Below are positions 1 to 39,469 of a DNA stretch of 64,000 bases, in pieces (position 1 is the stretch's first letter; every line of letters begins with the position of its first letter). The position numbers and the translations under genes were made by a program. The DNA is from Mumia sp. Pv4-285 (GTDB lineage Bacteria; Actinomycetota; Actinomycetes; Propionibacteriales; Nocardioidaceae). The stretch spans positions 806,001-870,000 of the forward strand of contig NZ_CP162023.1 of assembly GCF_041320275.1 (NCBI RefSeq), written 5' to 3'. A model generated the notes under the pieces. The model was given only the letters and a program-made list of their open reading frames with translations, did no database searches and was not told the origin of the DNA.

Positions 1-378
1 GCGATCGCCACGTTCGGCGAGATCCGCTGGCGGCTCGCGGACATCGCCGTCGCCGTCGACGGCCTCGACGAGATGGCCACGTTCACGTGGTTCCAAGTGC
101 GGCGGGACCGCGCGAGCGTCGCTGACGCCCTCGCTGTGCGGCTGGCGATGCTGGAGGCCGCGGGGAGCGTGCTGCGGAACGCGCACCAGGTCTTCGGCGC
201 GATCGGGCTGTGCGAGGAGCACGACCTGACGGTGGTCGACCGGCACCTGACACCGACGCTGATCCGACCATTCGGGCAGGGCAGGACCCTTGCCCTGCTC
301 GTCGAGGCGATCGACCGCTCCGGCTTCAGTGGGACCTTCGACGTAGCGTCGCGAGACGGTTCTATTCCAACCATCTAG
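1..378 (+). CDS. acyl-CoA dehydrogenase, C-terminal fragment
   Basis: This reading frame is open from the first base, so the gene begins outside the window; only the last 125 residues are seen. They look like the C-terminal helical domain of an acyl-CoA dehydrogenase: a helix-rich stretch followed by HQVFGAIGLCEEHDL, the counterpart of the usual HGGxGYTxEHDL segment near the FAD-binding end of the family, then a short tail. Such enzymes oxidise acyl-CoA thioesters to 2-enoyl-CoA with FAD. The stop codon TAG at 376-378 lies in the middle of a regulon operator that controls the next gene. The fold is fairly clear; the substrate is unknown. The glutamate of a YEGT-type motif is not visible here, as in heteromeric members. 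Confidence 0.75.
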   Translation, partial: AIATFGEIRWRLADIAVAVDGLDEMATFTWFQVRRDRASVADALAVRLAMLEAAGSVLRNAHQVFGAIGLCEEHDLTVVDRHLTPTLIRPFGQGRTLALLVEAIDRSGFSGTFDVASRDGSIPTI

Positions 379-383
379 TTGGT
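370..383. promoter_or_regulatory. regulon operator, site 1 (ACCATCTAGTTGGT)
   Basis: This 14-bp inverted repeat (ACCATCT/AGTTGGT, one mismatched pair) belongs to the family repeated through the first 40 kb. It lies directly before the SnoaL-like gene at 439 and overlaps the stop codon of the preceding dehydrogenase. A -10-like TAGGGT follows at 383-388, with a weak TTCTAT at 360-365 as the possible -35, which would put the operator in the spacer. Binding by a TetR protein is inferred. Confidence 0.65.
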
Positions 384-438
384 AGGGTACGCAGCAGCCG
401 AAGCGCTGACGGCGCGTTCCTTGACAGGCAGGTTGGCC

Positions 439-975
439 ATGGAAGACGAACTTGAGCAGCTGCGACGTGAGGTGGGGCAGCTGCGTGACCATGAAGAGAT
501 CCGACAGCTGCTCTTCCGCTACGCGAGAGGTGTCGACCGGGCCGATCTCGATCTCATCCGCTCGGTGTACGTCGCGGGTGGCACCGACCACCACGGTCCG
601 TTCGACGGCCCGGGTCGCGAGTTCGCGCAGGTCGTGGTCGACGGAGCGAAGGCGGTCTGGGACCACGTCGGCAACCACCACATCACCAACCACTACATCG
701 AGCTCGACGGCGACCGTGCTCGCGCCGAGGTCTACTTCCTTGCCTGCCATCCTCACGCCGACAACGGCCATCCCGAGCTGGCCGTCATGTCGGGCCGCTA
801 TCTCGACGAGCTCGAGCGTCGTGAGGGCGTCTGGGGAATCCTGCGACGTACCGTCGTCTCGGACTGGACGCGCAACCACTTCGGTGGTCCCGAGTGGGAG
901 AAGACGACCGAGCGCGGGGGCTACCCAGGTGGCCGGCGCGGTGATTCTGACCCCTCGTACGAGTTCTTCGGGTGA
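439..975 (+). CDS. SnoaL-like / NTF2-fold protein
   Basis: A 178-residue protein of the SnoaL-like (NTF2-fold) superfamily. Small cone-shaped members of this group act as hydratases, isomerases or cyclases on polyketide, terpenoid and steroid-like intermediates. The N-terminal half has the typical pattern: a charged helix, then EEIRQLLFRYARGVDRADLD, followed by a D/H-rich segment (GGTDHHGPFDG) and a histidine cluster HHITNHYIELDG. The ATG at 439 is preferred over an upstream TTG because it follows AGGCAGG and starts the family-like helix. It is the first gene of a four-gene run with a thioesterase and an LLM oxidoreductase, downstream of operator site 1. The reaction is not known. Confidence 0.75.
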   Translation: MEDELEQLRREVGQLRDHEEIRQLLFRYARGVDRADLDLIRSVYVAGGTDHHGPFDGPGREFAQVVVDGAKAVWDHVGNHHITNHYIELDGDRARAEVYFLACHPHADNGHPELAVMSGRYLDELERREGVWGILRRTVVSDWTRNHFGGPEWEKTTERGGYPGGRRGDSDPSYEFFG

Positions 976-982
976 CGCCGGC

Positions 983-1612
983 GTGAACGACGACAACCGG
1001 ATCGCAGTGCTGAGCCCCCACTGGAAGAGCTGGGCGGAGACGGCCATCCAGCAGATGGCGCCGGGGTGGCGCGAGATGACCGCCAGTCTGGGCAGACTTC
1101 AGGACGCGCTCGCCAGCGCGGTTCCGCCCGAGGACGTGGTCGCCGAGGCGACGGCGCTGATGGAGCGAGCGCGCGCACTGCTCGAGCCGTACGAGGTGTC
1201 CGGAAGCGAGCAGATCTTCGGTCGCCTCCTCACCTCCGCGACCAGGGGTCAGACCTTCAGCCCACCGTTGTGGGTCGACCGGTTCGAGGACGACGAGCTT
1301 GCGGCCACGACGAGGTTCGGCAGGTTCCATGCCGGGAACAACGGCGTCGTGCACGGTGGTGCCATTGCCTTGATGTTCGACGACGCCCTCGGTGTCACCT
1401 CGGACCTCGGCGGGCGTGAGCGCTCTCGTACGGCGTCCTTGACGGTGGACTTCCGCAGCCTGACGCCGCTGGACCGCGTGCTCGACGTCCGTGTCCGGCT
1501 CGCGCACCAGGAAGGCCGCAAGCGCACGCTGCGGGGGACCCTCAGCGACGGAGACCGGGTGTGCGCCGAAGCGACGGGACTGTTCATCGAGCTGCGACCG
1601 GACCAGCGATGA
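983..1612 (+). CDS. PaaI-like hotdog-fold thioesterase
   Basis: A 209-residue protein whose C-terminal two thirds form a hotdog-fold acyl-CoA thioesterase of the PaaI/4HBT kind: FHAGNNGVVHGGAIALMFDDALG carries the HGG signature with the family's acidic residue, followed by the beta strands TASLTVDFRSLTPLD. About 70 residues precede the hotdog and look helical. It would hydrolyse acyl-CoA intermediates and free CoA when the pathway stalls. The chosen start is GTG 983, seven bases after the stop of the SnoaL gene. The stop overlaps the next start (ATGA), which suggests translational coupling to the LLM oxidoreductase. Confidence 0.8.
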   Translation: MNDDNRIAVLSPHWKSWAETAIQQMAPGWREMTASLGRLQDALASAVPPEDVVAEATALMERARALLEPYEVSGSEQIFGRLLTSATRGQTFSPPLWVDRFEDDELAATTRFGRFHAGNNGVVHGGAIALMFDDALGVTSDLGGRERSRTASLTVDFRSLTPLDRVLDVRVRLAHQEGRKRTLRGTLSDGDRVCAEATGLFIELRPDQR

Positions 1613-2601
1613 GCGCCTTCGCGGATGTCTCGCGGCGACCGCAGCTGAGCGTATCGGTCCGCAACTACGCGTCATCGGCGCCGGACGACTGGCGGCACGT
1701 GCTGGATCAGGCGCGCGCCGCCGACGATGCGGGCGTCGACCGCATCTACGTCAGCGACCACGTCGTCTTCGGCAGTGACCTGGGCGACTACTCCGATCCC
1801 AGGCGTGGGGGGCGAGCCGGCGGCGCACAGCCGACGGGCCCGGACGGCGAGTGGATGGAGGCGCTCACCGTCGTCTCGGCCATGGCTGCCGTGACCTCGC
1901 GCGTCCGGATCGGCACCAACGTGCTGGTCGCGCCGCTGCGTCCGCCCGTGCTGCTCGCCAAGATGGCGGCCACGATCGACGCGATGTCGCACGGTCGGTT
2001 CGAGCTCGGCGTGGGGATCGGGTGGCAGGAGGCGGAGTACGCGGCGCTCGGCGTCGACTACGTGAGGCGAGGCAGCATCCTCGACGAGCAGCTGGCGGTC
2101 TGTCGAGAGCTGTGGACAGCTCCGGTCGCGAGCTTCGCGGGCCAGCACGTGAGCTTCGAGGGCATCCACATGATGCCGAAGCCGACGCGCGCGGGCGGTG
2201 TGCCGGTGTGGCTCGGCGGCAGCGTGAAGCCGTTCGTCGCGCGCCGTCTCGCCCAGTACGCGGACGGCTGGATCCCGTGGGGTGTGCCTGCAGAGGACTA
2301 TGCGTCGCACCTGAGTGAGATGCGAGCGCTCGTCGAGGCCGAGGGGGGCGATTTCGACCGGCTCCAGGTCGCCTACGCGTTGCCGCCGCGGTTCACCGAC
2401 GACCGCAAGATCGACCACGACGCGCTCTTCGCCGATGTGGCGAGCCTGGCCGCCGTCGGTGTCAGCGACTTCAGGACTGGTCTGCGGGTGCCGCCGAGCT
2501 ACGAGGCTGCGCACGCGATGTTCGCTGGGCTGGTGTCGACGTTCGAGCAGGCACTCGCGCCCACAGGGGTCGCGACGGACCAACCCTTGTCAACCAACTA
2601 G
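1609..2601 (+). CDS. LLM-class F420-dependent oxidoreductase
   Basis: A 330-residue luciferase-like TIM-barrel protein. The motifs DRIYVSDHVVFGSD near the N terminus, the RIGTNVLVAPLRPP strand, and SHGRFELGVGIGWQEAEY in the middle are typical of F420-dependent LLM oxidoreductases annotated in actinobacteria. Likely chemistry is hydride transfer to or from F420, or flavin-dependent oxygenation, on a pathway intermediate. The cofactor is inferred from family resemblance only. The gene starts at ATG 1609 inside the thioesterase stop (ATGA). Its own stop TAG at 2599-2601 falls in operator site 2. A second LLM gene of the same class lies at 20049-20936. Confidence 0.85.
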   Translation: MSAFADVSRRPQLSVSVRNYASSAPDDWRHVLDQARAADDAGVDRIYVSDHVVFGSDLGDYSDPRRGGRAGGAQPTGPDGEWMEALTVVSAMAAVTSRVRIGTNVLVAPLRPPVLLAKMAATIDAMSHGRFELGVGIGWQEAEYAALGVDYVRRGSILDEQLAVCRELWTAPVASFAGQHVSFEGIHMMPKPTRAGGVPVWLGGSVKPFVARRLAQYADGWIPWGVPAEDYASHLSEMRALVEAEGGDFDRLQVAYALPPRFTDDRKIDHDALFADVASLAAVGVSDFRTGLRVPPSYEAAHAMFAGLVSTFEQALAPTGVATDQPLSTN

Positions 2602-2616
2602 ACAGTTGGGTATACA
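2587..2616 (+). promoter_or_regulatory. promoter with regulon operator, site 2
   Basis: TTGTCA at 2587-2592 and TATACA at 2611-2616 form a good -35/-10 pair with an 18-bp spacer. The spacer holds the inverted repeat ACCAACT-AGAC-AGTTGGG (2593-2610), the same half-site as the other regulon operators but with four extra bases between the halves. Transcription would begin near 2623, upstream of the acyl-CoA dehydrogenase pair. The operator position implies repression by blocking RNA polymerase. Confidence 0.75.
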
Positions 2617-2664
2617 GATACCATGATCGAGGCCGCCGAGTCTCGGCACGACGAGGGAGTCGGC

Positions 2665-3681
2665 GTGGACTTTGAGCTCTCCGCGGAACAGCGCGACATC
2701 GTCGCCGCGTTCGAGAAAGCGCTCGGCCGTGAGTCCTCGAGTGCGCGGGTGCGAGCCGCGGAGAAGGCCGGGTTCGATCCCGAGCTCTGGTCGGTGCTCG
2801 TCGGAATGGGTGCGCTCGGGCTGGCGGAGGCCGTCGGAGAGGGTGGTTCGAGCGGTTTGCTCGATCTGGTCCTCGTCGCCGAGCGACTCGGAAGTCACTT
2901 GGCCAGTGTGCCGCTGACTGAGGCTGCCGTCGCCACGCTGACGATCGCAGAGGCCAGCCGTCTGGGGACGAGGCCCGAGCGCACGTCGGGCGTCGCGGGG
3001 ATGGTGACCTTCAGCCCGCGGCCCGTCCGCGGCGAGACCGCGTACGCAGTGAAGGGCGCAGCGGCAGCCGACGGTCTCGTCGTGCTCGACGGCGACGAGC
3101 TCGTCCTGGCGCGAGGCGCTGTCGTGGAACCCGTCGAAGACCTCGGGTTCACCGGTGCAGCGACCTGGCACCTCGGCGGCGACGCGGTCGAGATGCGGGT
3201 GCTGGCCCGCGGAGACGGCGCGGCCCACGCCTGGCGTCACGGTGTCGCCCGTTGGTACGCGATGACCGCTGCTGAGTGCGTGGGAGTCGCCGAGCGGTCC
3301 CTGAAGATCGCCGTCGACTACGCGATCGTGCGCGAGCAGTTCGGCGTCCCGATCGGTTCGTTCCAGGCGATCCAGCACGCGTTGGCCGAGGTGGCACTGG
3401 AGGTCGACGGAGCCCGGTTGCTGACCCGTGCGGCCGCGTGGCGGCACGACGAAGGCGTCTCGGACTGGACGACCTCGGCGACGGCGGCGTTCGCGAACGC
3501 CGCGGAGGTCGCCGTACGGACGGCGGAGGTCTGCTTGCACGTGCACGGCGGCTATGGCTACACGCTCGAGTACGACCCGCAGCTCTACCTGCGGCGCGCG
3601 AAGGGGTTGTCCCTGCATGGCGGCGATCCTGAAACGCTGTGGGCGTCGGTCGGCGCGGCGGCCCTGGCAGGGGTGGCGTGA
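2665..3681 (+). CDS. acyl-CoA dehydrogenase, small subunit of heteromeric pair 1
   Basis: About 338 residues from GTG 2665. This start has a good GAGGGAG site at 2654-2660 and gives the family-like N terminus DFELSAEQRD; an in-frame ATG at 2623 would be nearly leaderless and adds 14 residues. The protein shows the ACAD layout: helical N domain, a reduced beta domain, and a C domain with YAIVREQFGVPIGSFQAIQH and HVHGGYGYTLEYDPQLYLRRAKG. It lacks the YEGT glutamate motif. It is fused by a one-base stop-start overlap (TGATG) to a second ACAD, the arrangement of alpha2-beta2 heteromeric dehydrogenases that oxidise steroid-type acyl-CoAs. It is controlled from operator site 2. The substrate is unknown. 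Confidence 0.85.
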   Translation: MDFELSAEQRDIVAAFEKALGRESSSARVRAAEKAGFDPELWSVLVGMGALGLAEAVGEGGSSGLLDLVLVAERLGSHLASVPLTEAAVATLTIAEASRLGTRPERTSGVAGMVTFSPRPVRGETAYAVKGAAAADGLVVLDGDELVLARGAVVEPVEDLGFTGAATWHLGGDAVEMRVLARGDGAAHAWRHGVARWYAMTAAECVGVAERSLKIAVDYAIVREQFGVPIGSFQAIQHALAEVALEVDGARLLTRAAAWRHDEGVSDWTTSATAAFANAAEVAVRTAEVCLHVHGGYGYTLEYDPQLYLRRAKGLSLHGGDPETLWASVGAAALAGVA

Positions 3682-4844
3682 TGCACTTCGGAACCGACAC
3701 ACGCGCAGATCGGCTGCGCGCCGAGGCGCGGGACTTCGTCGCTGGGCACCTCACACCGGCGGTCAAGGCGCGTGTCGCCGAGTCCGGCAACTACCACGAC
3801 GACGAGTTCCATCAGGCGATGGCCGAGCGCGGATGGGTGGGTGCTCACTGGGCGCGGGAGGAGGGTGGCCAGGCGTGGCCCCGCGCGCTCAGCGACGTCG
3901 TCTACGAGGAGCTGGCAGCCGCTGGCGCGCCGGTCGAGGGCCTTGCGATCACACAGATCATCGGTGAGGCGATCCGACGAGTCGGGACTCCCGAGCAGAG
4001 AGCCGCGTTCCTGCGGCCGATCTGCCGGGGCGAGATCGTGCTTGCGCTCGGCTACAGCGAGCCAGGTGCAGGTTCGGACCTCGCGTCGGTACGAACCCGC
4101 GCCGTCCGTGACGGAGACCAGTGGGTCGTGAACGGCCAGAAGATCTTCACGACGATGGGCAGCGCCGCCGACTACGTCTTCCTCCTGGCGCGGACCGACC
4201 CGGACGCGCCGAAGCATGCCGGCCTGACCTTGTTCCTCGTGCCGACCGACTCGCCCGGCTTCTCCGCTTCACCGATCTTCACGCTCAGCGGACAGCGAAC
4301 GAACGTGACGTACTACTCCGACCTCCGCATCGACGACTCTGCCCGGCTCGGGGACGAGGGTCAGGGTTGGGAGATCGTCAACGTCGCTCTCGCCTTCGAA
4401 CGCGGAGGCGAGTTCGCCGCGCAGCTACGCCGCCTCGTGACCGCGGGCGTGCAGTGGGCCCGCGACGCGGGACGGTCTGACGATCCCAGCGTTCTGGCCC
4501 GACTCGGGCGCGCGGCGACGTCGTCGGAGGTCGCCCGGCTCCTCGGTGCGTACGCGTCGTGGTCGCGACAGTCGGTGGAGGCCGGCGCGGTCGAGGGGAC
4601 CATCGCCAAGGTCTACGGCACGGAGGCTCTCCAGCGCGCGAGCGGATCCCTGCTCGACGCAGCGGGGGTCGACGGTCTCGCGAACCCAGACAGCACTCGT
4701 GAGTCTGCGGCCGCTGCGCTGCAGCACCTCTACCGCGAGTCGCAGATCGCCACGATCTACGGCGGCACCTCCGAGGTGCTCAAGACCGTGATCGCCCAGC
4801 AACGCCTGGGACTACCCCGCCCGCCACGGACGTCGTCGCGCTGA
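3681..4844 (+). CDS. acyl-CoA dehydrogenase, large subunit of heteromeric pair 1
   Basis: A 387-residue acyl-CoA dehydrogenase. Visible are the middle-domain signature LGYSEPGAGSDLASVRTRA, the beta domain WVVNGQKIFTTMG, and the C-terminal ATIYGGTSEVLKTVIAQQRLGLP. In short-chain homotetrameric ACADs this last segment reads YEGT and supplies the catalytic glutamate; here that position is glycine, as in many subunits of heteromeric ACADs where the base is elsewhere. The start codon shares one base with the preceding small subunit's stop, so the two are probably made in equal amounts and assemble together. The next gene, an acyl-CoA ligase, starts 36 bases on, after its own AGGAGG. Confidence 0.88.
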   Translation: MHFGTDTRADRLRAEARDFVAGHLTPAVKARVAESGNYHDDEFHQAMAERGWVGAHWAREEGGQAWPRALSDVVYEELAAAGAPVEGLAITQIIGEAIRRVGTPEQRAAFLRPICRGEIVLALGYSEPGAGSDLASVRTRAVRDGDQWVVNGQKIFTTMGSAADYVFLLARTDPDAPKHAGLTLFLVPTDSPGFSASPIFTLSGQRTNVTYYSDLRIDDSARLGDEGQGWEIVNVALAFERGGEFAAQLRRLVTAGVQWARDAGRSDDPSVLARLGRAATSSEVARLLGAYASWSRQSVEAGAVEGTIAKVYGTEALQRASGSLLDAAGVDGLANPDSTRESAAAALQHLYRESQIATIYGGTSEVLKTVIAQQRLGLPRPPRTSSR

Positions 4845-4880
4845 CGGACCGATCGGCCCCATCTCGCAGGAGGATTCACC

Positions 4881-6509
4881 ATGGTTTCGCCCGAGCTCGA
4901 GAACATCGCGACCGTCTGGGAGACGATCGCCGCACACCTGCCCGACGCGTTGGCCCAAGCGCATGGCGACCGGACGTTCACGTGGTCCGAGTTCGAGACC
5001 CGCGCGAACGGCGTCGCACGCACGCTGCTCGACAGCAGTGCGAGCCATGACGACCGCGTCGCGCTCTATCTCCGCAACAGCCCCGAGTACCTGGAGGTCC
5101 AGCACGCGGCCTTCAAGATCGGCATCCCGGCGATCAATACCAACTACCGCTATCGCGACGAGGAGCTGCAGTACCTGTTCGAGGACGCCGACGTGACGTC
5201 GGTGGTCTTTCACGGCGCCTTCACGGAGACGATGGCGGCGCTGCGAGGGCGGCTGGGCAAGGTCCGTCAGTACCTCCACGTCGACGACGGCACCGAGGAG
5301 TGTCCCCCGTGGGCGGTCCCCTACGAGCAGGCGGCTGCGGCCGATGCGGGGCAGGTCCGGTCGTCGTGGGGTCGCTCGGGTGCCGACTTGTTCCTCCTCT
5401 ACACCGGCGGGACGACCGGCATGCCGAAGGGTGTCATGTGGCGGGTGATCGACATGCTCCGGCAGATCAACGACGTCGCGGGCATCTCGTTCGACCTCGA
5501 TGACCTCGAGGCGAGTATCCGGCGCACGCTCGTCGAGCCCGGTCCGGTCCACATCTCGTGCAGCCCGATGATGCACGGCAGTGGCTGGTTCGGCGCGACG
5601 ATGGCCATGCACAAGGGCGGTGCTGTGGCGTCGTTGGTCTCGCCCACGTTGGATCCCGTGGAGCTGCTCGACACGATCGACCGGCACCGAGTGCAGAGTC
5701 TCACCATCGCCGGCGAGGTCTTCGCGCGACGGATCCTCGCCACGCGCGCGGAGGATCCCGACCGCTGGGACGTGTCCTCGGTCCGTCACCTCCTCTCCTC
5801 GGGAGGCATGCTCAGCGAGGCGAGCAAGGAAGGCCTGCTCGAGCTCTGGCCGGAGGCGGCGATCCTTGACGGATTCTCGTCGTCAGAGGGCTTCGGCATG
5901 GGATGGTCGATGGCGACCAAGGGCAACATCCCGCCAACCGGTCGGTTCAGCCCGGGGGCGAACACGACGGTGCTCGACGATGACGGCGTGGCGGTCGAGC
6001 CCGGTTCCTCCGTCGTGGGGACGCTCGTCGTCACCGGACGGCTGCCGCTGGGCTACTACAAGGACCCGGAGAAGACCCAGCGGACGTTCCCCCTCGTCAA
6101 CGGCGAGCGCGCATCTGTGCCCGGTGACCGCGCCATCGTGCTCGAGGACGGCACGATCCAGCTGATGGGCCGCGACTCGCTGTGCATCACGTCAGGTGGG
6201 GAGAAGATCTTCACCGAGGAGGTCGAGGGAGTCATTCTCGACCACGAGAGCGTCGCCGACGTCCTGGTGATCGGGCTTCCGGATCCGGAATGGGGGCAGA
6301 CGGTGGCGGCGGTCGTCAGCCTTGATCCCGACGCCCCCGTGGCTGGCCTCGACGACCTGATCAGCCATGTGAAGCATCGCCTGGCGAGCTACAAGGCACC
6401 GCGGCACATCGCGATCGTGGAGACGGTGCCGCGCGGTCCGAACGGCAAGGCGGTCTACGCGGAGGCGCGCCGGATCGCAGAGGAGTCCCGGCAGGTGGCG
6501 CCGGCGTAG
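4881..6509 (+). CDS. AMP-forming acyl-CoA ligase
   Basis: A 542-residue ANL-superfamily ligase (acid + ATP + CoA to acyl-CoA + AMP + PPi). The phosphate-binding motif LLYTGGTTGMPKGVMWR sits near residue 170, the A5-type region SSSEGFGMGWS about 335, and a C-terminal domain with SGGEKIFTEEVEG and the final catalytic lysine segment PRGPNGKAVYAEARR. Family members of this subtype often act on bulky or steroid-like acids. The start ATG follows a clear AGGAGG at 4868-4873. It is the third gene after operator site 2, with the heteromeric ACAD pair before and a SnoaL-like gene after, so it probably activates an acid that the pair then dehydrogenates. Confidence 0.88.
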   Translation: MVSPELENIATVWETIAAHLPDALAQAHGDRTFTWSEFETRANGVARTLLDSSASHDDRVALYLRNSPEYLEVQHAAFKIGIPAINTNYRYRDEELQYLFEDADVTSVVFHGAFTETMAALRGRLGKVRQYLHVDDGTEECPPWAVPYEQAAAADAGQVRSSWGRSGADLFLLYTGGTTGMPKGVMWRVIDMLRQINDVAGISFDLDDLEASIRRTLVEPGPVHISCSPMMHGSGWFGATMAMHKGGAVASLVSPTLDPVELLDTIDRHRVQSLTIAGEVFARRILATRAEDPDRWDVSSVRHLLSSGGMLSEASKEGLLELWPEAAILDGFSSSEGFGMGWSMATKGNIPPTGRFSPGANTTVLDDDGVAVEPGSSVVGTLVVTGRLPLGYYKDPEKTQRTFPLVNGERASVPGDRAIVLEDGTIQLMGRDSLCITSGGEKIFTEEVEGVILDHESVADVLVIGLPDPEWGQTVAAVVSLDPDAPVAGLDDLISHVKHRLASYKAPRHIAIVETVPRGPNGKAVYAEARRIAEESRQVAPA

Positions 6510-6527
6510 GTCAGGGGGATCGGCACT

Positions 6528-7884: not shown

Positions 7885-7914
7885 GTCGTCGGTGGGCGCG
7901 CCGTCGGGCGCACT

Positions 7915-9146: not shown

Positions 9147-9179
9147 ACCTTACCTGCCGACCAGTTGGTTGGCTATACT
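9147..9179. promoter_or_regulatory. divergent promoters with regulon operator, site 3
   Basis: The operator ACCAGTTGGTTGGC occupies 9160-9173. For the plus strand, TTACCT (9150-9155) and TATACT (9174-9179) are 18 bp apart. For the minus strand, TAGCCA and TAAGGT (complement of 9147-9152) are 17 bp apart, the -10 ending about eight bases before the thiolase ATG. One operator would therefore silence both the thiolase and the SDR-ligase-MaoC operon. Confidence 0.72.
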
Positions 9180-15021: not shown

Positions 15022-15052
15022 CGGCTACCGGAAGCCGCGCTTGCGGTAGCCG
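15022..15052. terminator. hairpin between convergent operons
   Basis: CGGCTACCG (15022-15030) and CGGTAGCCG (15044-15052) are perfect 9-bp arms around a 13-base loop. The hairpin starts eight bases after the ligase stop and covers the stop codon of the convergent CoA-transferase B gene. No clear U-run follows, as is common in high-GC actinobacteria. It may end transcription from both sides. Confidence 0.55.
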
Positions 15053-15828: not shown

Positions 15829-15832
15829 CGAT

Positions 15833-16714: not shown

Positions 16715-16721
16715 CGCCGCC

Positions 16722-17656: not shown

Positions 17657-17686
17657 ACCCTAGTCAACCGACTGGTTGGCTGGCAA
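17657..17686. promoter_or_regulatory. promoter with regulon operator, site 4
   Basis: The operator ACCGACTGGTTGGC lies at 17667-17680. On the minus strand TTGCCA (complement of 17681-17686) and TAGGGT (complement of 17657-17662) are 18 bp apart, so the operator fills the spacer of the promoter for the crotonase-CoA-transferase operon. The divergent ACAD at 17723 lies just downstream on the other side and may share this control, though no convincing plus-strand -10 is visible. Confidence 0.72.
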
Positions 17687-21704: not shown

Positions 21705-21761
21705 GCTGGCTGGTTGGCTGATCTCGCCGGTTGCGGTAGCGTACCCCACCAACCGGTTGGT
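21705..21761. promoter_or_regulatory. regulon operator, site 5 (perfect palindrome plus half-like second site)
   Basis: ACCAACCGGTTGGT at 21748-21761 is a perfect 14-bp palindrome and the best copy in the window. A weaker copy, GCTGGCTGGTTGGC, lies at 21705-21718 with only its right half conserved. TAGCGT (21737-21742) and TGTACG (21761-21766) are 18 bp apart on the plus strand; on the minus strand a -10-like TACGCT follows the palindrome. The site lies between the SDR operon and the long ligase-to-ACAD operon. Confidence 0.75.
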
Positions 21762-21776
21762 GTACGAGGAGGATCT

Positions 21777-29106: not shown

Positions 29107-29134
29107 GCACGTTCGGACGACGAGAGGGCGACGG

Positions 29135-29908: not shown

Positions 29909-29930
29909 GAGGGCGGCCGCCCTGCTCACG
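29904..29930. terminator. bidirectional hairpin terminator
   Basis: CGTGAG (29904-29909) pairs with CTCACG (29925-29930), and between them AGGGCGGCCGCCCT is itself a palindrome, giving one long stem with a single bulged G. It includes the stop codons of both convergent genes. It probably separates the ligase-to-crotonase operon from the carboxylase genes. Confidence 0.65.
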
Positions 29931-32040: not shown

Positions 32041-34379
32041 CGTGATCCCTCCTGGGTGAACACCATCTCGGCCAGCACCGGCTCGGTCGCGCGCGCGACC
32101 TCGACGGTCATCAGGGTCTGGCATCCCGGGCAGCAGTACCGACGCAGGACCATGTCCTCGTCGAGCAGCACCCGTGGGTCCTCGACCCGCGGAAGCGTCG
32201 TGAGCTCGGCCTGGTCGACCAGCAGCCCCAGCTTGTAGTTGTCGCGGTAGTCGGTGAGGACGCGATCGCACCTCGCGCAGGCCAGCACCCGCCGTTCGCC
32301 CTCGTCGCGTACGGCGACGGACTCGTGGACGAGCCTGGTCGGCTCCCCGGTCGACGGCGAGGTGTCTGCGCTCGTCCCGGGGCCGAAGACGTCCGCGACC
32401 GTCCGCCACCGCGCCCGCTCCGCCCGGATCGCCTCGCGCCGAGCCGCCGTCGCGGCGGCGTCGAGCGCCGCGCTGTCATCGACTGCGACGCCGTACAGCT
32501 CGGACGCCGCGGCCCGGGACACGTATCCCTGAGCCACGTCGTCGGCGACGCGTTCGGGCTCGCGGTCGAGCGGGTCGCCGTAGCCACCGCCGCCGCAGAC
32601 GATGAGCAGGAGCACGTCTTCGGCGTTCAGCGGCGTGCCGTTGGACTTGCCGCGCAGGCGGAGGGTCTCGCGACGGGACAGGTCGGCGACGTCTCTCGGC
32701 ACCTGCTGCTGCGCCCAGTGGTCACGGACGTCCGTGCCGACGAGTACCTGGTAGGAGGCCGTCGGCGACGGAAGGCCACCGAAGACCCCGACCGCCTGAT
32801 TGGTCGAGACTCCCTGGCCGCCGGCGTTCGTCACGATGTCGATCGCGTGCGACCGGTACGGCGTGATCGCGACCTCCATGCCGACGCCGCCGCGCCACCG
32901 CCCGGCACCACCGGTGTCGGGCGCCTCCTTCCGGTACATCACGAGGAACGGGTAGAACTGCTCGCTCGACTCGATGTTGGGCATGCGGATGAGCGGGATG
33001 TACGACGCGCCGCTGGTCTCGACCCCGTCGGTGTACGACCGGGCGCCGCCACCGAAGCCGGACGCCTCCGTCAGGGCCGTGCCGAACGGGTAGCCGCGTT
33101 CGTCGCTGCCCGAGATGACCGTCAACGGGATGTCAGGGCCGGACACGACGACGTCGCCCACGAGGTCGGGGTCGCAGGCCATGAGGCGGGAGAACATGTT
33201 CATCAGTCGCATGTAGGCGCTGCTGACGTTGAGGACGCTGCCGCTGACAGCCGCGGGGTAGTCGCAACAGCTGAGCGTGCCGGGGATCGGGCGGAAGTCG
33301 ATCTGGCGCTCGGCGCCGCCGATGGCGAACGTCTGCTCGTAGAGCGTCGTCTGGGCGATCACCCCCAGCACGATCCCGGCGAAGTTCATGTAGGTGAACC
33401 CGTTCGGGCCCTCGCTCTGGTCCTCCGTGCCGACGTTGTCGATGATCAGGCGAGAGCCCTGCTTGGTGATGTTGAACTGCACGCGGTGGGTCGTCCGGTC
33501 ACCCGGCAGCTTCTCGTCGAAGTACAGGACATCGCTCAACGTGCAGTCCGGGATCCGCTCCAGCTTGCGCGCGAACGCGGACTGGGCGTTGTCCAGGATC
33601 TTGCGCATGGCGGCCTTGACCGTCGGCGCACCGAACTCCTCGCAGGTCTCCTGGAGACGCTGGGCCGCGAACCGGCACCCGGCGAGCTGCGCACGCAGGT
33701 CCAGCGCCACCATGTCGGGCAGGCGCGACTGCCGCCGGTACATCTCCTCGAGGTCGGGGCGCAGGACGCCGCGCTCGACGAGCTTGAACGGTCGGAAGAT
33801 GATCGGGTCGCTGAAGATGTCCGGAGCGTTCTGCGGCCAGCCGCCGGGCACGATGCCGCCGAGGTCGTACTGCTGCGCCGCGTTCGACACCCAGGCGAAC
33901 AGCTTCCCGTCGACGAACACCGGCGCTGCGATGCACACGTCCATCTGGTGCGACGCGCCGATCCAGGGGTCGCTCGCGAGGAAGATGTCGCCCTCCTCGA
34001 TCCCGGGGCTGTCGCTCAGCCGCTCCATGAGGTAGCGCACGAGGAGTGGGGAGCCCGTGTTCAGGTACTGGATGAACGGCCCGCTCATCAGGTTCTCGCC
34101 GTCCTCGGTGAGGATCGACATGTTGAAGTCGTACGCCTGGAAGATCGGGGACCCCGACATCCGTGTGAGGGTGTCAGCGTGGGCGAGGTTGATCGTCCAT
34201 AGCCGGTTGCGGAGGACCTCGAACGTCACCGGGTCGAGGTCCTCGTCCACCCGGGTGTCGAAGACGAGGGAGGGGGAGACCCGGGTCTGCCAGTCCGGGG
34301 CGGGCCGGTAGCTGTGCTGGACTCCGTCCCAGACGATGTCGTCGTAGGAGTCTCGCTGTTCCGGTCGTACGGCCGTCAT
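32037..34379 (-). CDS. hydantoinase B / acetone carboxylase alpha-like subunit with C-terminal zinc-ribbon domain
   Basis: A 780-residue HyuB-type protein: DPVTFEVLRNRLWTI at about residue 32, then MSGPFIQYLNTGSPLL, DIFLASDPWIGASHQMD, and GGAGRWRGGVGMEV, all typical of the family. About 130 residues extend beyond the usual HyuB end. This extension holds CARC near residues 701-704 and YCCPGCQTLMTVEVA near 748-762, resembling the small zinc-binding gamma subunit of acetone/acetophenone carboxylases (PF08882-like). A fused gamma-like domain supports a ketone-carboxylase role over hydantoin hydrolysis. ATG 34379 lies about 50 bases below the site 6 promoter. It is cotranscribed with the ATPase subunit. 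Confidence 0.85.
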   Translation of the reverse strand: MTAVRPEQRDSYDDIVWDGVQHSYRPAPDWQTRVSPSLVFDTRVDEDLDPVTFEVLRNRLWTINLAHADTLTRMSGSPIFQAYDFNMSILTEDGENLMSGPFIQYLNTGSPLLVRYLMERLSDSPGIEEGDIFLASDPWIGASHQMDVCIAAPVFVDGKLFAWVSNAAQQYDLGGIVPGGWPQNAPDIFSDPIIFRPFKLVERGVLRPDLEEMYRRQSRLPDMVALDLRAQLAGCRFAAQRLQETCEEFGAPTVKAAMRKILDNAQSAFARKLERIPDCTLSDVLYFDEKLPGDRTTHRVQFNITKQGSRLIIDNVGTEDQSEGPNGFTYMNFAGIVLGVIAQTTLYEQTFAIGGAERQIDFRPIPGTLSCCDYPAAVSGSVLNVSSAYMRLMNMFSRLMACDPDLVGDVVVSGPDIPLTVISGSDERGYPFGTALTEASGFGGGARSYTDGVETSGASYIPLIRMPNIESSEQFYPFLVMYRKEAPDTGGAGRWRGGVGMEVAITPYRSHAIDIVTNAGGQGVSTNQAVGVFGGLPSPTASYQVLVGTDVRDHWAQQQVPRDVADLSRRETLRLRGKSNGTPLNAEDVLLLIVCGGGGYGDPLDREPERVADDVAQGYVSRAAASELYGVAVDDSAALDAAATAARREAIRAERARWRTVADVFGPGTSADTSPSTGEPTRLVHESVAVRDEGERRVLACARCDRVLTDYRDNYKLGLLVDQAELTTLPRVEDPRVLLDEDMVLRRYCCPGCQTLMTVEVARATEPVLAEMVFTQEGSR

Positions 34380-34432
34380 CTCTGATCCCGCCTCCAGTCG
34401 TGCGTCGAACCGCTCGCGCGATGCCTGGCGCG

Positions 34433-34461
34433 ACCGTACAACCAACCAACTGGATGGTCAA
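34433..34461 (-). promoter_or_regulatory. promoter with regulon operator, site 6
   Basis: On the minus strand TTGACC (complement of 34456-34461) and TACGGT (complement of 34433-34438) are 17 bp apart. The operator ACCAACTGGATGGT (34445-34458) fills most of the spacer and overlaps the -35. The promoter faces the carboxylase-like hyuB-hyuA genes, so these belong to the same regulon as the ACAD and ligase operons. Confidence 0.75.
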
Positions 34462-34480
34462 TATCAGTGTGTGATCGCGC

Positions 34481-35521: not shown

Positions 35522-35528
35522 GCGGCCG

Positions 35529-35581
35529 AGGCTACACAACCGACCAGTTGGTTGACTAGGGCTGCATCCCCCCTCTAGCCT
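35529..35581. promoter_or_regulatory. divergent promoters with regulon operator, site 7
   Basis: The operator ACCGACCAGTTGGT lies at 35539-35552. On the plus strand TTGACT (35552-35557) and TAGCCT (35576-35581) are 18 bp apart and point to ACAD pair 3; the operator abuts the -35. On the minus strand TAGCCT (complement of 35529-35534) lies seven bases before the lipocalin-like start, with the operator just upstream of it. One site can therefore control both genes. Confidence 0.72.
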
Positions 35582-35611
35582 GACGTGTATCGAGCAGTCG
35601 TGGAGGCGCAC

Positions 35612-36781
35612 TTGAAGACGGTCATCGGTCCGACGCAGCGGCAGTTCCTCGCTGACCTCAGGTCCTATCTCGACGGGCTCGACCCAGAGCTGGTCGCGGC
35701 CACGCGGGCGGAGAACATCGAAGACCCCATGCAGCCGCGCGAGAACGGCCGTCGGTTCCTGCGCCGGCTCGCCGCAGACGGATGGCTCGGGGTGTCCTGG
35801 CCCACCGAGTACGGCGGCCAGGGTCGTACCGAGATCGAGCACTGGCTCTTCGCCGAGGAGCTCTACAGCCGCCGGCTGCCGAACGGCCTCCTCACCCTCA
35901 ACGTGATCGGTCCGACGCTGATGCTGATGGGGAGCGAGGCGCAGAAGGCGGACTATCTCCCCAGGATCATCAACGGCGATCAGGTGTTCGCGATCGGCTA
36001 CAGCGAGCCCGACGCAGGGAGCGATCTCGCGTCGTTGCGGACGCGAGCCGTGCGCGACGGCGACGAGTACGTGGTGAACGGGCAGAAGATCTGGACGACC
36101 GGGGGCGACGTCGCCACGCACTACTGGCTGGCGGCTCGCACGGGCAGGCCCGAGGACAAGCACCGCGGCGTCAGCCTCTTCATCGTCCCGATGGACGCGC
36201 CCGGAATCTCCATCACACCGATCATCACCCAGGGAGGCGAGCGGACCACCTCGGTCTTCCTCGACGACGTTCGCATCCCCGCCAGCCAGCGCATCGGCGA
36301 GGAGAACGAAGGCTGGGCGGCGATCGTCTGCGCGCTCAACTTCGAGCGGATGTTCTTTCACAACGAGCCCCGCTGGGAGCTCGAGCAGCTCGCGGGCTGG
36401 GCGGACGCGCAAGGGCTGCTGGAAGGCGAGACCCCGCAGGCGTACGCCCTGCAGGAGCGGATGGGTGAGCACGCCGTCGACGTGGAGATCTGCCGGCTGT
36501 TCGCGCTGCGGGGCGCAGGCATGCTTGCCGCAGGCCAGGTGCCGAGAGCCGAGGCTTCGGCCAACAAGATCTGGTGGGGCGAGCTGCGGCAGCGGATCTG
36601 CAACACCGGACTGGACCTCGTCGGGGAGGACGGGACGATCGCGACGGGCTCGCCCTACGCGCCCGCGGGTGGCCACCTCGAGCACGGCCTCCAGTCGTCG
36701 CCGGTGTGGCGCTTCGGGGGCGGGACCAACGAGATCCAGCTCGACATCATTGCCAACCACGGGCTGGGGATGCCGCGATGA
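35612..36781 (+). CDS. acyl-CoA dehydrogenase, large subunit of heteromeric pair 3
   Basis: About 389 residues from TTG 35612, which follows GGAGG (35602-35606) by five bases; an in-frame GTG at 35585 would lie upstream of the transcription start predicted from the promoter at 35552-35581. Signatures are IGYSEPDAGSDLASLRTRA, YVVNGQKIWTTGGDV and the C-terminal WRFGGGTNEIQLDIIANHGLGMP. The catalytic-glutamate position of YEGT is glycine, as in the other large subunits. In this pair the large subunit comes first, the reverse of pairs 1 and 2. The small subunit start overlaps its stop (ATGA). Controlled by site 7. Confidence 0.88.
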   Translation: MKTVIGPTQRQFLADLRSYLDGLDPELVAATRAENIEDPMQPRENGRRFLRRLAADGWLGVSWPTEYGGQGRTEIEHWLFAEELYSRRLPNGLLTLNVIGPTLMLMGSEAQKADYLPRIINGDQVFAIGYSEPDAGSDLASLRTRAVRDGDEYVVNGQKIWTTGGDVATHYWLAARTGRPEDKHRGVSLFIVPMDAPGISITPIITQGGERTTSVFLDDVRIPASQRIGEENEGWAAIVCALNFERMFFHNEPRWELEQLAGWADAQGLLEGETPQAYALQERMGEHAVDVEICRLFALRGAGMLAAGQVPRAEASANKIWWGELRQRICNTGLDLVGEDGTIATGSPYAPAGGHLEHGLQSSPVWRFGGGTNEIQLDIIANHGLGMPR

Positions 36782-37896
36782 CCGCGTTCACGCTCTCGCC
36801 GGAGGAGGCTCAGGTCCAGGCGACCGCGCGTGCCTTCCTGCGCGACTTCGTCGACAACAGCTACCTGAACGAGCAGGAGGAGTCCGCGACGGGATTCGAG
36901 CCGCTCCGGTGGGTCCGGATGCGCGACCTGGGTTGGAGCAGTGTGCATCTGCCCGACCGTGTCGGTGGCGCCGACGGCAGCCTCGTCGATGCGGCGCTCA
37001 TCACTCGCGAGTGCGGCAGGGCCGCGTACGCGAGCCCGCTGCTCCAGACGCTGCGTGCGGCGACCACCATGTCCGCCCTCGGCGCTGACAAGACGTACGA
37101 CGACGTGCTGTCGCGCATCGGCGACGGAGAGATCGCGACTTTGGTCGCGCCCCCTGACCGGGCGGTCGTCGCTGACGTGGCCGCAGGCGGCTTCGTCCTC
37201 AGTGGGCGTCCGGTTGTCGTCGAGTGGCTCGCGCAGGCGGACTGGGTCGTGCTCGTACTCCCGACCGTCGGGCAGGACTGTATCGGCGCAGTCGTGCCGG
37301 CGGACTTCCTCGGCGACCGAGCCGTCGAAGTCCCGAGCATCGACAACGAGCGGATCGTCAGGCTCGACCTCGACGGACTGGAGCTCCCGGAGGATGTCGT
37401 GCGGTCGACGAACGTCTCGGCGACGGAGGCCGCGTACGCTCTCGCGCGTGCGGACCTGCTGCGGGCCAGTGCGATGGTCGGCGGTGCGCAGGACGTCGTC
37501 GAGCGTACGGCGAAGTACGCGCTCGAGCGTCACCAGTTCGGTCAGCCGCTCGGCAGGTTCCAGGCGGTTCGCCACCACCTCGCGCGGATGGTGATCGCCG
37601 CCGACGGTGCTCAGCTGCTCTGCGACGATGCGTTGGACCGGGCGCAGCCTGGGGCTGACGAGACGGCCATCGCGCAGGCGGCGGTCTTTGCTGCCGGCAG
37701 GGCGTACGTCGACGTGGTGCTGACAGCAGCGCAGGTGCACGGCGGCGTCGGGACGACCGTCGAGCACATCCTTCACCACCACTTCAGGCGCGCAAAGGCG
37801 ATGCAGCTGCGGTCGGGTCAGCGGTCTGCTCGCCTGCGGGAGCTTCACCATGCACTGGTCGTGCGCAAAGAAGGCGTCGAAGGGAGCTTGTGGTGA
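36778..37896 (+). CDS. acyl-CoA dehydrogenase, small subunit of heteromeric pair 3
   Basis: A 372-residue ACAD-like protein. It keeps the helical N domain (SPEEAQVQATARAFL) and the C domain (YALERHQFGQPLGRFQAVRHHLA near residue 245, then QVHGGVGTTVEHILHHHFRRAKAM), while the middle domain lacks the TEPxAGSD signature. That pattern fits a structural or partly active subunit of a heteromeric enzyme. Both ends overlap its neighbours: ATGA with the large subunit and GTGA with the SDR that follows. The three genes should be made together. Confidence 0.86.
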   Translation: MTAFTLSPEEAQVQATARAFLRDFVDNSYLNEQEESATGFEPLRWVRMRDLGWSSVHLPDRVGGADGSLVDAALITRECGRAAYASPLLQTLRAATTMSALGADKTYDDVLSRIGDGEIATLVAPPDRAVVADVAAGGFVLSGRPVVVEWLAQADWVVLVLPTVGQDCIGAVVPADFLGDRAVEVPSIDNERIVRLDLDGLELPEDVVRSTNVSATEAAYALARADLLRASAMVGGAQDVVERTAKYALERHQFGQPLGRFQAVRHHLARMVIAADGAQLLCDDALDRAQPGADETAIAQAAVFAAGRAYVDVVLTAAQVHGGVGTTVEHILHHHFRRAKAMQLRSGQRSARLRELHHALVVRKEGVEGSLW

Positions 37897-38678
37897 CGAC
37901 TGCGCGCGTGGCCGTGGTCACGGGAGGCGGCAGAGGACTCGGTCGAGCCACGGCCCTCCGGCTTGCGCGCGAAGGGATCGACGTCGCCGTGGTCGCCCGC
38001 TCGCTCGACGAGGTCTCGGCGGTGGCCGACGAAGCGAAGTCCTGCGGCGTGCGGGCTCGTGGTCTGTCCGTCGACGTCACGTCGACGGAGGCGGTCGACG
38101 CTGCGCGCGACGAGATCGAACGCGATCTCGGCCGGGTCGTCATCCTCGTGAACAACGCGGGCAACCTGCTCTACAAACCTTTCGTCCCGCTTCCGGGCCA
38201 AGAGGGGGCATACCCCGGATTCGACTCGCCGATCGGCGATGACGAGTGGGCGAGCGTCATGGAGGTCCACCTGGGCGGCGCGATGCGGATGCTTCGTGCG
38301 TTCGGCCCGGGGATGCTCGAACGAAGGACTGGGCGGGTCGTCAACGTCGTCAGCAACGTCGTGCGTCGATCCGTGCCGTTCACGGTCGGGTACGACACCG
38401 CGAAGGGTGCGCTCGTCCAGCTGACGCGTTCGCTCGCGCGAGAGTGGGGGCGATATGGCGTCACCGTCAACGCGGTGGCCGCCGGGCACTTCAAGACCGA
38501 GATGACCCGCGAGCAGTTCGAGAACGTACGTGCTCACGAGAAGATGATCCAACGGGTCGCCGTGCGGCGGACCGGCGAGCTGGAGGAGTTCGCTGACCTC
38601 GTCGCCTACCTGTGCAGCGAGACGGCCGGCTTCGTCACCGGCGAGGTGATCGCGATCGACGGCGGCGAGACTCTCTGA
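37893..38678 (+). CDS. short-chain dehydrogenase/reductase
   Basis: A 261-residue classical SDR. TGGGRGLGRATA is the cofactor loop, NNAGN follows, and the catalytic tyrosine and lysine lie in GYDTAKGALVQL. The C terminus has GHFKTEMTREQF and GFVTGEVIAIDGGE. There is a loop of about 15 residues after NNAGN (PLPGQEGAYPGFD) that may shape the substrate pocket. GTG 37893 is taken as the start because AGGGAG then has six-base spacing; a GTG one codon earlier is possible. It probably oxidises the hydroxyacyl-CoA or ring alcohol formed after ACAD pair 3. Last gene of the operon from site 7. Confidence 0.9.
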   Translation: MTTARVAVVTGGGRGLGRATALRLAREGIDVAVVARSLDEVSAVADEAKSCGVRARGLSVDVTSTEAVDAARDEIERDLGRVVILVNNAGNLLYKPFVPLPGQEGAYPGFDSPIGDDEWASVMEVHLGGAMRMLRAFGPGMLERRTGRVVNVVSNVVRRSVPFTVGYDTAKGALVQLTRSLAREWGRYGVTVNAVAAGHFKTEMTREQFENVRAHEKMIQRVAVRRTGELEEFADLVAYLCSETAGFVTGEVIAIDGGETL

Positions 38679-38696
38679 GGTTGCGCGGTCAGCCGG

Positions 38697-39287
38697 TCAG
38701 TCTCGGGTCGCGAGCACCCCGGCCAGGACGAACTCGGTCAGCTCCTCGACGAGCGCGGCCTTGCCTCGTCCGGAGCGCGGGCGGAACCAGTTGGGGATGT
38801 AGGCCAGCACGCCGACGATCGAGTAGTGCACGATGCTGACGTTGACGGGCCGGAACTCGCCCGCGTCGATGCCCTCCTTCAGAAGCTTCTGGGAGAAGCT
38901 GCGGTACTTGTCGACCCGCCGGAGGACGTCGCTCGCTTGCTCGGCAGGGAGATTCCGCTCCACCCAGGGCAGCTCTTGGAAGAACACCACGAGCTCGTCC
39001 GACGCTCCTGCCGCTTGAGTCACCTCCAGCCGGATGAGCTCGCGGAACCGCTCCGTCGGCGTGCCTGTCGCGGGGACCTTCGCGAGCAGCTCCATCGTCG
39101 TGTCGAGCTGGTCGGCCAGCAGCTCGAACAGAATCGCGCTCTTCGAGGGGTAGTAGTGGTAGAGCGTGCCCTTGTTCAGCCCGACCGTGTCGGCGATCAG
39201 GTCCATGGTCGCGGAGCTGTAGCCGTGCTCACGAAACAGCTGGGCAGCGGTCGAGCGCACATCGGCACGTCGTGAAACTCTCGGCAT
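38697..39287 (-). CDS. TetR-family repressor (paralogue 1)
   Basis: A 196-residue TetR-family regulator. The N-terminal helix-turn-helix reads GYSSATMDLIADTVGLNKGTLYHYYPSKSAIL at about residues 22-53. The ligand-binding domain has SDELVVFFQELPWVERNLP, as in the KstR2-like group of acyl-CoA-responsive repressors. The start ATG 39287 follows AGGAAAGGA. Nearly the same protein is encoded at 39524-40123, divergently. The operator-like repeat at 39448-39469 lies between the two. I infer that one or both bind the repeated ACCAACYRGTTGGT sites in this window and are released by a CoA thioester from the pathway. Confidence 0.9.
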   Translation of the reverse strand: MPRVSRRADVRSTAAQLFREHGYSSATMDLIADTVGLNKGTLYHYYPSKSAILFELLADQLDTTMELLAKVPATGTPTERFRELIRLEVTQAAGASDELVVFFQELPWVERNLPAEQASDVLRRVDKYRSFSQKLLKEGIDAGEFRPVNVSIVHYSIVGVLAYIPNWFRPRSGRGKAALVEELTEFVLAGVLATRD

Positions 39288-39447
39288 GTCGTTCCTTTCC
39301 TCGGGGTCACTGCGGATGTGCGAGCTGCCACGTTGCGCGGGTTGGCCGCGTCGCCGCCGTCCGCGATCGTATCGCCGGATTGGGGAGCCGTCGTCTCGAC
39401 AGTCTGACGCCGCCCATCCTGGTCTCAAGTCTTGGTAGGGTATTTGT

Positions 39448-39469
39448 ACCAGCCGAACAGTCGGTTGGT
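39448..39469. promoter_or_regulatory. regulon operator, site 8, between the paired TetR genes
   Basis: ACCAGCCGA (39448-39456) and TCGGTTGGT (39461-39469) form 9-bp arms with one mismatch around ACAG. The half-site and the four-base spacer match site 2. It lies 55 bases before the TetR paralogue 2 start and about 160 bases from the start of paralogue 1, so autoregulation is likely. The rest of the 236-base interval (39288-39523) shows no other clear feature. Confidence 0.7.

What the first reader, a model, noticed from the sequence alone, without database searches (positions are those of the whole stretch)
370..39469. One repeated operator defines a 39-kb TetR regulon
Eight intergenic sites carry variants of ACCAACYRGTTGGT: 370-383, 2593-2610, 9160-9173, 17667-17680, 21748-21761 (perfect), 34445-34458, 35539-35552 and 39448-39469, plus a weaker copy at 21705. 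Each lies at an operon start, and all lie within the first 40 kb; I saw no copy after 40 kb. This ties ligases, dehydrogenases, CoA-transferase, carboxylase-like and lipocalin-like genes into one substrate pathway. The core AACnnGTT recalls the KstR site, but the flanks differ.
Basis: partly seen in the sequence, partly recalled or inferred. Interest (0 to 1): 0.8.

Follow-up and report, generated by a model that had tools for sequence, protein, structure and literature searches.

The report
Shared switch for a catabolic gene cluster
One short DNA sign, repeated in front of the operons of a large degradation gene cluster, appears to let a pair of sister repressor proteins switch the cluster on and off together, and the same protein-and-sign pairing recurs in distant soil bacteria, so an unnamed breakdown pathway can now be tested as one unit.

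Summary
The palindrome ACCAACYRGTTGGT recurs in eight promoter regions of the window (17 places at up to 3 mismatches against 2.7 expected); no copy with up to 2 mismatches lies after 40 kb. The '39 kb' is only the window edge: more copies lie up to 37 kb upstream, so the regulon spans about 769.3-845.5 kb. An 18-bp extension occurs 12 times in the 4.65-Mb genome at up to 3 mismatches, all 12 inside this cluster; the reversed control gives 0. The two divergent TetR genes share their DNA-reading region. Orthologs (50-61% identical) in Dactylosporangium, Nocardia, Actinomadura, Actinophytocola and Nakamurella sit among homologous pathway genes, and 11 of 14 such loci have the palindrome within 300 bp upstream of the TetR gene, against 9% of random stretches. 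Operators lie against -10-like hexamers, which fits repression. The nearest known site is that of KstR2, with the inner base pair exchanged; the proteins are not KstR2. The substrate is unknown; IpdA/B-like, KshA-like and acetophenone-carboxylase-like genes suggest a cyclic or polycyclic compound. Binding is untested. A new member of a known kind.

The parts
370..383 (.). operator before the SnoaL-like gene
   Evidence: 1 mismatch; identical over 18 bp in G001
2593..2610 (.). 18-bp operator form before the acyl-CoA dehydrogenase pair and CoA ligase
   Evidence: 3 mismatches as 14-mer; 94% over 18 bp in G001; found by the 18-mer scan
9156..9173 (.). operator with two overlapping registers, between a thiolase (-) and an SDR (+)
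   Evidence: 2 and 3 mismatches; 72% over 18 bp in G001
17667..17680 (.). operator between the hydratase/IpdA-like/IpdB-like operon (-) and an acyl-CoA dehydrogenase (+)
   Evidence: 2 mismatches; 94% over 18 bp in G001
21748..21761 (.). perfect operator between an SDR (-) and the CoA-ligase operon (+)
   Evidence: 0 mismatches; 83% over 18 bp in G001
34445..34458 (.). operator before the HyuB-HyuA operon (-)
   Evidence: 1 mismatch; no counterpart found in G001, where a second HyuA/HyuB-like stretch lies at this place
35539..35552 (.). operator before an acyl-CoA dehydrogenase operon (+)
   Evidence: 1 mismatch; identical over 18 bp in G001
39448..39469 (.). 22-bp operator form between the two divergent TetR genes
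   Evidence: 3 mismatches as 14-mer; 21 of 22 bases kept in G001; not found by the 18-mer scan
38697..39287 (-). TetR-A, candidate regulator
   Evidence: TetR_N and TetR_C_24 over their cut-offs (on the longer frame 38697-39428); 62% identical to TetR-B
39524..40123 (+). TetR-B, candidate regulator
   Evidence: TetR_N and TetR_C_24 over their cut-offs (on the longer frame 39272-40123); 86% identical to its G001 ortholog
15025..17618 (-). enoyl-CoA hydratase and two CoA-transferase subunits (IpdA/IpdB-like)
   Evidence: PF00378, PF01144 twice; alpha-like subunit matches glutaconate CoA-transferase 1.6e-36 and 6co6 1.8e-35; the name IpdAB for 6co6 is recalled
29926..34445 (-). HyuA and HyuB; HyuB ends in an acetone-carboxylase-gamma-like domain
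   Evidence: PF01968, PF02538, PF08882; acetophenone carboxylase delta 2.2e-53; below the NCBIfam equivalog cut-offs
2623..6509 (+). two acyl-CoA dehydrogenases and a CoA ligase behind the 2593 operator
   Evidence: Pfam
21753..29908 (+). CoA ligases, family III CoA-transferase, hydratases and acyl-CoA dehydrogenases behind the 21748 operator
   Evidence: Pfam; operon extent inferred from spacing
35585..38678 (+). two acyl-CoA dehydrogenases and an SDR behind the 35539 operator
   Evidence: Pfam

Best explanation
The palindrome is the operator of a TetR family represented here by the divergent pair TetR-A and TetR-B. Without inducer, dimers sit on operators that lie against the -10 elements and keep about a dozen promoters of one catabolic cluster (769.3-845.5 kb) silent, including the regulators' own. 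A pathway intermediate, most likely an acyl-CoA thioester, releases them. Shown by computation: the operator set, its confinement to this cluster, its conservation, its place at promoters, and its presence upstream of orthologous TetR genes in other genera. Inferred: binding, repression rather than activation, the kind of inducer, and that both paralogs read the same site.
For: 18-mer confined to the cluster, 12 of 12 matches genome-wide, reversed control 0. 11 of 41 places of the 14-mer in 1.7% of the genome. In G001 nine operators align to conserved counterparts; for eight of them, chosen because G001 also scored there, 18-mers are 91% and flanks 51% identical. TetR-A and TetR-B are 62% identical with a nearly unchanged helix-turn-helix region. 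In 14 loci of other genera, 11 have the motif at up to 3 mismatches and 7 at up to 2 within 300 bp upstream of the TetR gene; random stretches of the same loci 9% and 4%, inside the TetR genes 2 of 13, 3 kb upstream 1 of 14. Of all 16,384 palindromes ACCAACCGGTTGGT ranks first in those upstream regions. 22 of 38 operator places there lie upstream of homologs of Mumia cluster genes, random positions 9.3%. TANNNT at an operator edge in 27 of 38 picked sites, background 1.1% and 0.6%. Model of TetR-B resembles AibR with isovaleryl-CoA and KstR2.
Against: No binding or expression data. 3 of 14 TetR loci (L024, L025, L035) lack the motif near the TetR gene, and two loci (L028, L035) have no place scoring 14 or more. 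The palindrome counts (9 and 5 of 14) exceed shuffles (5-8, 2-3) but a control 3 kb upstream reaches the same counts with other palindromes (9 and 5), so only the identity of the winner tells. At 3 mismatches it shares first place with another palindrome. Sites 34445 and 783816 have no clear counterpart in G001, and 797986 aligns poorly. The site between the TetR genes themselves is weak as a 14-mer. Several loci are close relatives, not independent.
Confidence: 0.85

Rival explanations
1. The operator belongs to another regulator of the neighbourhood (third TetR at 40115-40708, GntR at 801.5 kb, PucR at 767 kb or the AraC-type genes), and the TetR pair is only a neighbour.
For: These genes exist near the cluster; the GntR has homologs in 2 of the 14 TetR loci.
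Against: The third TetR, the PucR and the two AraC-type genes tested have no match over 100 bits in the 14 loci that carry TetR and operator (loci were chosen by the TetR pair, so this is biased). The palindrome sits upstream of the TetR orthologs in 11 of 14.
Confidence: 0.06
2. The TetR pair binds the operator but mainly activates transcription.
For: TetR-type activators such as FasR exist (recalled; a FasR model is among the weak NCBIfam matches of both proteins, 42-44 bits against a cut-off of 330).
Against: Operators lie on or against -10-like hexamers (27 of 38), where a bound dimer would block RNA polymerase.
Confidence: 0.07
3. The sites are KstR or KstR2 operators of a classical steroid regulon.
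For: Same 14-bp plan and TAnCA-ACCAA flank as listed KstR2 sites (PMC3068626); KshA-like and IpdA-like genes.
Against: No KstR over cut-off in the genome, best 43.9 bits against 280; no AnCAAGnnCTTGnT in the genome; the TetR pair is only 24-25% identical to KstR2 by structure alignment, whereas KstR2 orthologs in the paper share over 50%.
Confidence: 0.01
4. Chance or composition of a GC-rich genome.
For: The 14-mer at up to 2 mismatches is no commoner genome-wide than its reversed control (41 against 42).
Against: Concentration in the cluster, conservation and recurrence upstream of TetR orthologs in other genera.
Confidence: 0.01

Closest known systems
KstR2 regulon of mycobacteria and rhodococci (PMC3068626, passages seen)
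   Same: TetR repressor with TetR_C_24-like neighbours in structure (TM 0.81); 14-bp palindrome AnCAAGnnCTTGnT with the same outer bases and the TAnCA-ACCAA flank in listed sites; controls CoA-transferase (IpdA/B), FadE, FadD and SDR genes around itself.
   Different: Inner base pair exchanged (CAAC..GTTG instead of CAAG..CTTG); proteins 24-25% identical; about 13 operators over 77 kb instead of three; two TetR paralogs; HyuAB, KshA-like and transporter genes included.
KstR regulon
   Same: AACnnGTT core (KstR consensus recalled, not seen in a call); TetR repressor of a catabolic regulon.
   Different: Outer bases differ; no KstR over cut-off in this genome; the pair scores 24-29 bits against a cut-off of 280.
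AibR of Myxococcus (5k7z, isovaleryl-CoA and operator DNA)
   Same: Best structural match of the TetR-B model by E-value (TM 0.77); ligand is an acyl-CoA.
   Different: 26% identical; different pathway; operator not compared.
Mce3R of M. tuberculosis (PMC11667970, passages seen)
   Same: Two TetR units linked with sterol-related genes; a half of it matches TetR-B at 6e-11.
   Different: Both units fused in one chain, binding a 25-bp non-palindromic site; here two separate genes and a palindrome.

Membership tests
TetR family transcriptional regulators | TetR_N DNA-binding domain over the Pfam cut-off | tested here: met
   57.0 and 51.6 bits against 24; TetR_C_24 70.3 and 65.6 against 26.4
TetR family transcriptional regulators | all-helical fold of known TetR regulators | tested here: met
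   TetR-B model, mean pLDDT 85.3, matches AibR and KstR2 with TM about 0.8; TetR-A was not modelled
TetR family transcriptional regulators | binds a palindromic operator | not testable with these tools
   needs gel shift; only co-occurrence shown
KstR2 | ortholog of Mtb KstR2 (over 50% identity in the paper) | tested here: not met
   24-25% over aligned structures; phmmer 4e-13 and 2e-11, behind 3dcf
KstR2 | operator AnCAAGnnCTTGnT | tested here: not met
   0 exact matches in the genome, reversed control 7
KstR | NCBIfam NF033703 over its cut-off | tested here: not met
   29.2 and 24.2 bits against 280; best in genome 43.9
Classical steroid ring pathway | IpdE2 (NF050027) over its cut-off | tested here: not met
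   best 142.8 bits against 450
Classical steroid ring pathway | KshA-type oxygenase | tested here: inconclusive
   one KshA_C match in the genome, in this cluster upstream of the window, 82.2 bits against 23.3; best solved relative KshA at 5e-30, orthology not shown
Acetophenone carboxylase / caprolactamase | NCBIfam equivalog score over cut-off | tested here: not met
   HyuB 205 against 1500 and HyuA 314 against 1500 for the carboxylase; HyuA 465 against 1000 for caprolactamase

The most novel reading that the evidence does not exclude
An undescribed third type of actinobacterial ring-catabolism regulon, parallel to KstR and KstR2: two TetR sisters with the same DNA-reading region but diverged ligand domains share one composite operator (two registers 4 bp apart), so that two different pathway intermediates are read at the same promoters, for a pathway that joins a KshA-like oxygenase, IpdA/IpdB-like ring opening and HyuAB-type ATP-dependent carboxylation or hydrolysis.
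Probability: 0.3. Interest if true: 0.65.

Novelty: new member of a known kind. Interest (0 to 1): 0.5.

Why it matters
The operator is a sequence tag that delimits an unknown catabolic pathway of roughly 50 called genes and finds its relatives in other genera, which makes the substrate question testable by simple induction experiments. It adds a sister operator to the KstR2 type that differs by one exchanged base pair per arm, and offers a natural case of two repressor paralogs on one operator set.

Tried and rejected
Considered and rejected: chance; KstR or KstR2 proper; the site at 21705; the copies at 5933 and 778832 as operators (5933 lies inside a CoA-ligase gene; the 778832 sequence recurs in L024 and L025 in a stretch matched by an amidohydrolase-like protein); the two 1-mismatch copies outside the cluster at 1283630 and 4070111 (both inside long open frames).

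Led nowhere: viral contigs hold no relative of TetR-B. Of 394 genomes of the class only the window's own matched the TetR alignment at 1e-35. Of 58 relatives, the own genome, G001 and, at 33%, G018 matched at 1e-20; none of the five G018 motif hits scoring 11 or more lies within 500 bp upstream of its TetR. NCBIfam named no enzyme well enough to fix the substrate. No paper found prints the operator in a bacterial context: 0 papers; 7 papers; by title and start of abstract none on a bacterial regulator. Listings showed no description of this regulon; one search found 0 papers; one search was too unspecific.
Full report
Where it lies. The window is bases 806001-870000 of a single-contig 4.65-Mb genome with 69% GC. 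A genome of the same genus, G001, has a contig of the same length as Mumia xiangluensis NEAU-KD1 Scaffold3 with the same TetR at the same place, so the window most likely comes from another Mumia species (inference).

The observation. At up to 3 mismatches ACCAACYRGTTGGT has 17 places in the window against 2.74 expected. All eight lie in promoter regions. No place with up to 2 mismatches lies between 40 kb and the window end. The copy at 21705 does not hold up. A matrix scan of 726-890 kb finds more sites upstream of the window: 769307 before a peptide-type ABC transporter; 783816 before a second HyuA/HyuB pair; 790193 between a DUF7064/7065 gene and a metallo-beta-lactamase-fold gene; 793658 (two weak registers) before a KshA-like Rieske oxygenase followed by a thiolase; and a weak one at 797986 before a branched-chain-type ABC transporter. 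The regulon thus spans about 769.3-845.5 kb.

More than chance. Genome-wide, 11 of 41 places with up to 2 mismatches fall in this 77 kb (5e-11), although the total equals that of the reversed control (41 and 42). The 18-bp extension CAACCAACYRGTTGGTTG at up to 3 mismatches has 12 matches in the whole genome, all between 769 and 842 kb; the reversed control has none. Two of the 12 overlap, so there are 11 places: 10 in promoter regions and one (778830) in a stretch that seems coding. The 18-mer misses 793658, 797986 and 39448. It was derived partly from these sites, so the telling number is the zero outside. A matrix built from 17 sites of other genera, themselves first found with the window's matrix, gives 17 hits scoring 12 or more in this region against 1.8 expected; 12 are at the operators above, 5 are not (744358, 772399, 778832, 811933, 863510). 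Two other 20-kb stretches, chosen because they hold the two 1-mismatch sites outside the cluster, give 4 such hits; the two sites lie inside long open frames.

Conservation. G001 keeps the cluster in the same order, reversed, with one extra HyuA/HyuB-like stretch. Nine operators align to clear counterparts (806370, 808593, 815156, 823667, 827748, 841539, 845448, 790193, 793658). For eight of them, picked because G001 also scored there, 18-mers are 91% identical and flanks at 11-40 bp 51%; the choice raises the first figure and the lack of gaps lowers the second. Sites 783816 and 840445 (window 34445) have no clear counterpart, 797986 aligns poorly although G001 has a good site nearby, and 769307 lies beyond the end of the G001 contig.

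Which regulator. Two divergent TetR genes, 38697-39287 and 39524-40123, are 62% identical, and the helix-turn-helix region is nearly unchanged between them. One scan of the 84,980-species collection gave 17 loci: one is G001, two are distant proteins (35-37%) without any motif place scoring 14 or more, and 14 are relatives at 50-61% (L035, a fragment, 75% over 106 residues): Dactylosporangium (4 loci, two copies per genome about 41 kb apart), Nocardia (3), Actinomadura (3), Actinophytocola, Nakamurella and two metagenome-assembled genomes. The scan needed one of two exact peptides in or near the recognition helix, so it is a lower bound and biased towards conserved helices. In the 300 bp upstream of the 14 TetR genes, 11 have the motif with up to 3 mismatches and 7 with up to 2; L024, L025 and L035 have none. 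Random 310-bp stretches of the same loci, which hold other operators, reach this in 9.0% and 4.4% (n 4200); stretches inside the TetR genes in 2 of 13, and 3 kb upstream in 1 of 14. Ranking all 16,384 14-bp palindromes blindly, ACCAACCGGTTGGT comes first at 2 mismatches (5 of 14; 20 shuffles 2-3) and shares first place at 3 (9 of 14; shuffles 5-8). The same counts (5 and 9) are reached by other palindromes 3 kb upstream, and higher ones (9 and 13 of 13) inside the conserved TetR genes, so the count alone is not special; that the winner is the window's motif is. Within the 14 loci, 38 operator places score 14 or more; 12 loci have at least one, L028 and L035 none. 22 of the 38 lie within 200 bp upstream of a homolog of a Mumia cluster gene, against 9.3% of random positions. 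The third TetR, the PucR and the two AraC-type regulators tested have no match over 100 bits in these loci; the GntR has in two. The same gene stands behind the same operator for the KshA-like gene and the thiolase (L030, L031), the FadE of 35585 and the branched-chain-type permease (L027), SnoaL (L032), the SDR of 20933 (L024) and HyuB (L034).

How it works. For the next two analyses I picked 38 operators by hand: 9 from G000, 9 from G001 and 20 from other genera, leaving out near-duplicate loci and places that looked coding; they are not the same 38 as above. The symmetrised logo extends to about TAnyCA-ACCAACYRGTTGGT-TGrnTA, and 27 of 38 have TANNNT at an edge, against 1.1% of random positions in the region and 0.6% at 45-140 bp from the G000 operators. 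An operator on the -10 region fits steric repression. A second 14-bp register exactly 4 bp away is far above random flanks (z 11.3; 20 of 38 score 8 or more; none at any other offset from 1 to 10), so many sites could take two overlapping dimers or either of two positions; this is unexplained. The predicted TetR-B structure (pLDDT 85) is closest by E-value to AibR with isovaleryl-CoA, and resembles KstR2 (TM 0.81), hence the guess of an acyl-CoA inducer. There is no direct evidence on the inducer. A tree of 18 TetRs puts the two Mumia copies and the two Dactylosporangium copies in separate lineages, with the deep branching unresolved.

What it controls. Acyl-CoA dehydrogenases, CoA ligases, hydratases, SDRs, luciferase-like monooxygenases and SnoaL-like proteins; a hydratase with a CoA-transferase pair in the order of EchA20-IpdA-IpdB (order and names recalled; the A subunit matches glutaconate CoA-transferase and 6co6 about equally); HyuA/HyuB with an acetone-carboxylase-gamma-like end. 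Upstream of the window lie a Rieske ferredoxin and a flavin/iron-sulfur reductase-like protein that could serve the KshA-like oxygenase; no operator stands directly before them, and they are included by position and because homologs lie in L024 and L025. The KshA_C match is the only one in the genome; no KstR or IpdE2 reaches its cut-off. The substrate is not settled; a cyclic ketone or a polycyclic terpenoid- or steroid-like compound is my best guess.

Comparison. KstR2's published motif AnCAAGnnCTTGnT and listed sites (PMC3068626, passages) share length, outer bases and the TAnCA-ACCAA flank with the sites here; the constant difference is the inner pair. The proteins are not KstR2 orthologs (24-25%) and the genome has no KstR2 motif. 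The Nocardioides simplex study (PMC7807495, passages and its motif section) names other new motifs without printing them in the text I read, and SRTF1 (PMC7062782, passages) has a 22-bp palindrome whose letters I did not see; identity with those is not excluded from the text.

Verdict. A real regulon, well supported in silico and larger than reported; ordinary in kind, new in its members, with an untested regulator-operator pair and an unknown substrate.

Noticed in passing
38 hand-picked operators in window, L007, L008, G001 and other genera: 20 of 38 carry a second overlapping palindrome register exactly 4 bp away (z 11.3); some sites (2593, 39448) keep only widened forms with 4 or 8 bp more between the arms.
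   Followed up: partly
L024/L031 and L025/L030: Dactylosporangium clusters also hold two TetR paralogs, about 41 kb apart on one contig, so two sister regulators per cluster is not peculiar to Mumia.
   Followed up: partly
window 40115-42669: A third, unrelated TetR gene stands divergent to an acyl-CoA dehydrogenase/SDR operon without the operator; it looks like a separate small regulon.
   Followed up: no
window 42695-48123: Three DJ-1/PfpI-AraC-type regulators lie within 5.5 kb.
   Followed up: no
G000 775129-776979 (L007): Two alpha/beta-hydrolase genes in tandem match each other's G001 counterparts at about 93% DNA identity, a recent tandem duplication.
   Followed up: no
G001 contig C3 518209-522453 (L016): A stretch 72-74% identical to the upstream HyuA/HyuB pair lies next to the window-type HyuB/HyuA operon; HyuAB genes seem to move or duplicate within the regulon.
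   Followed up: no
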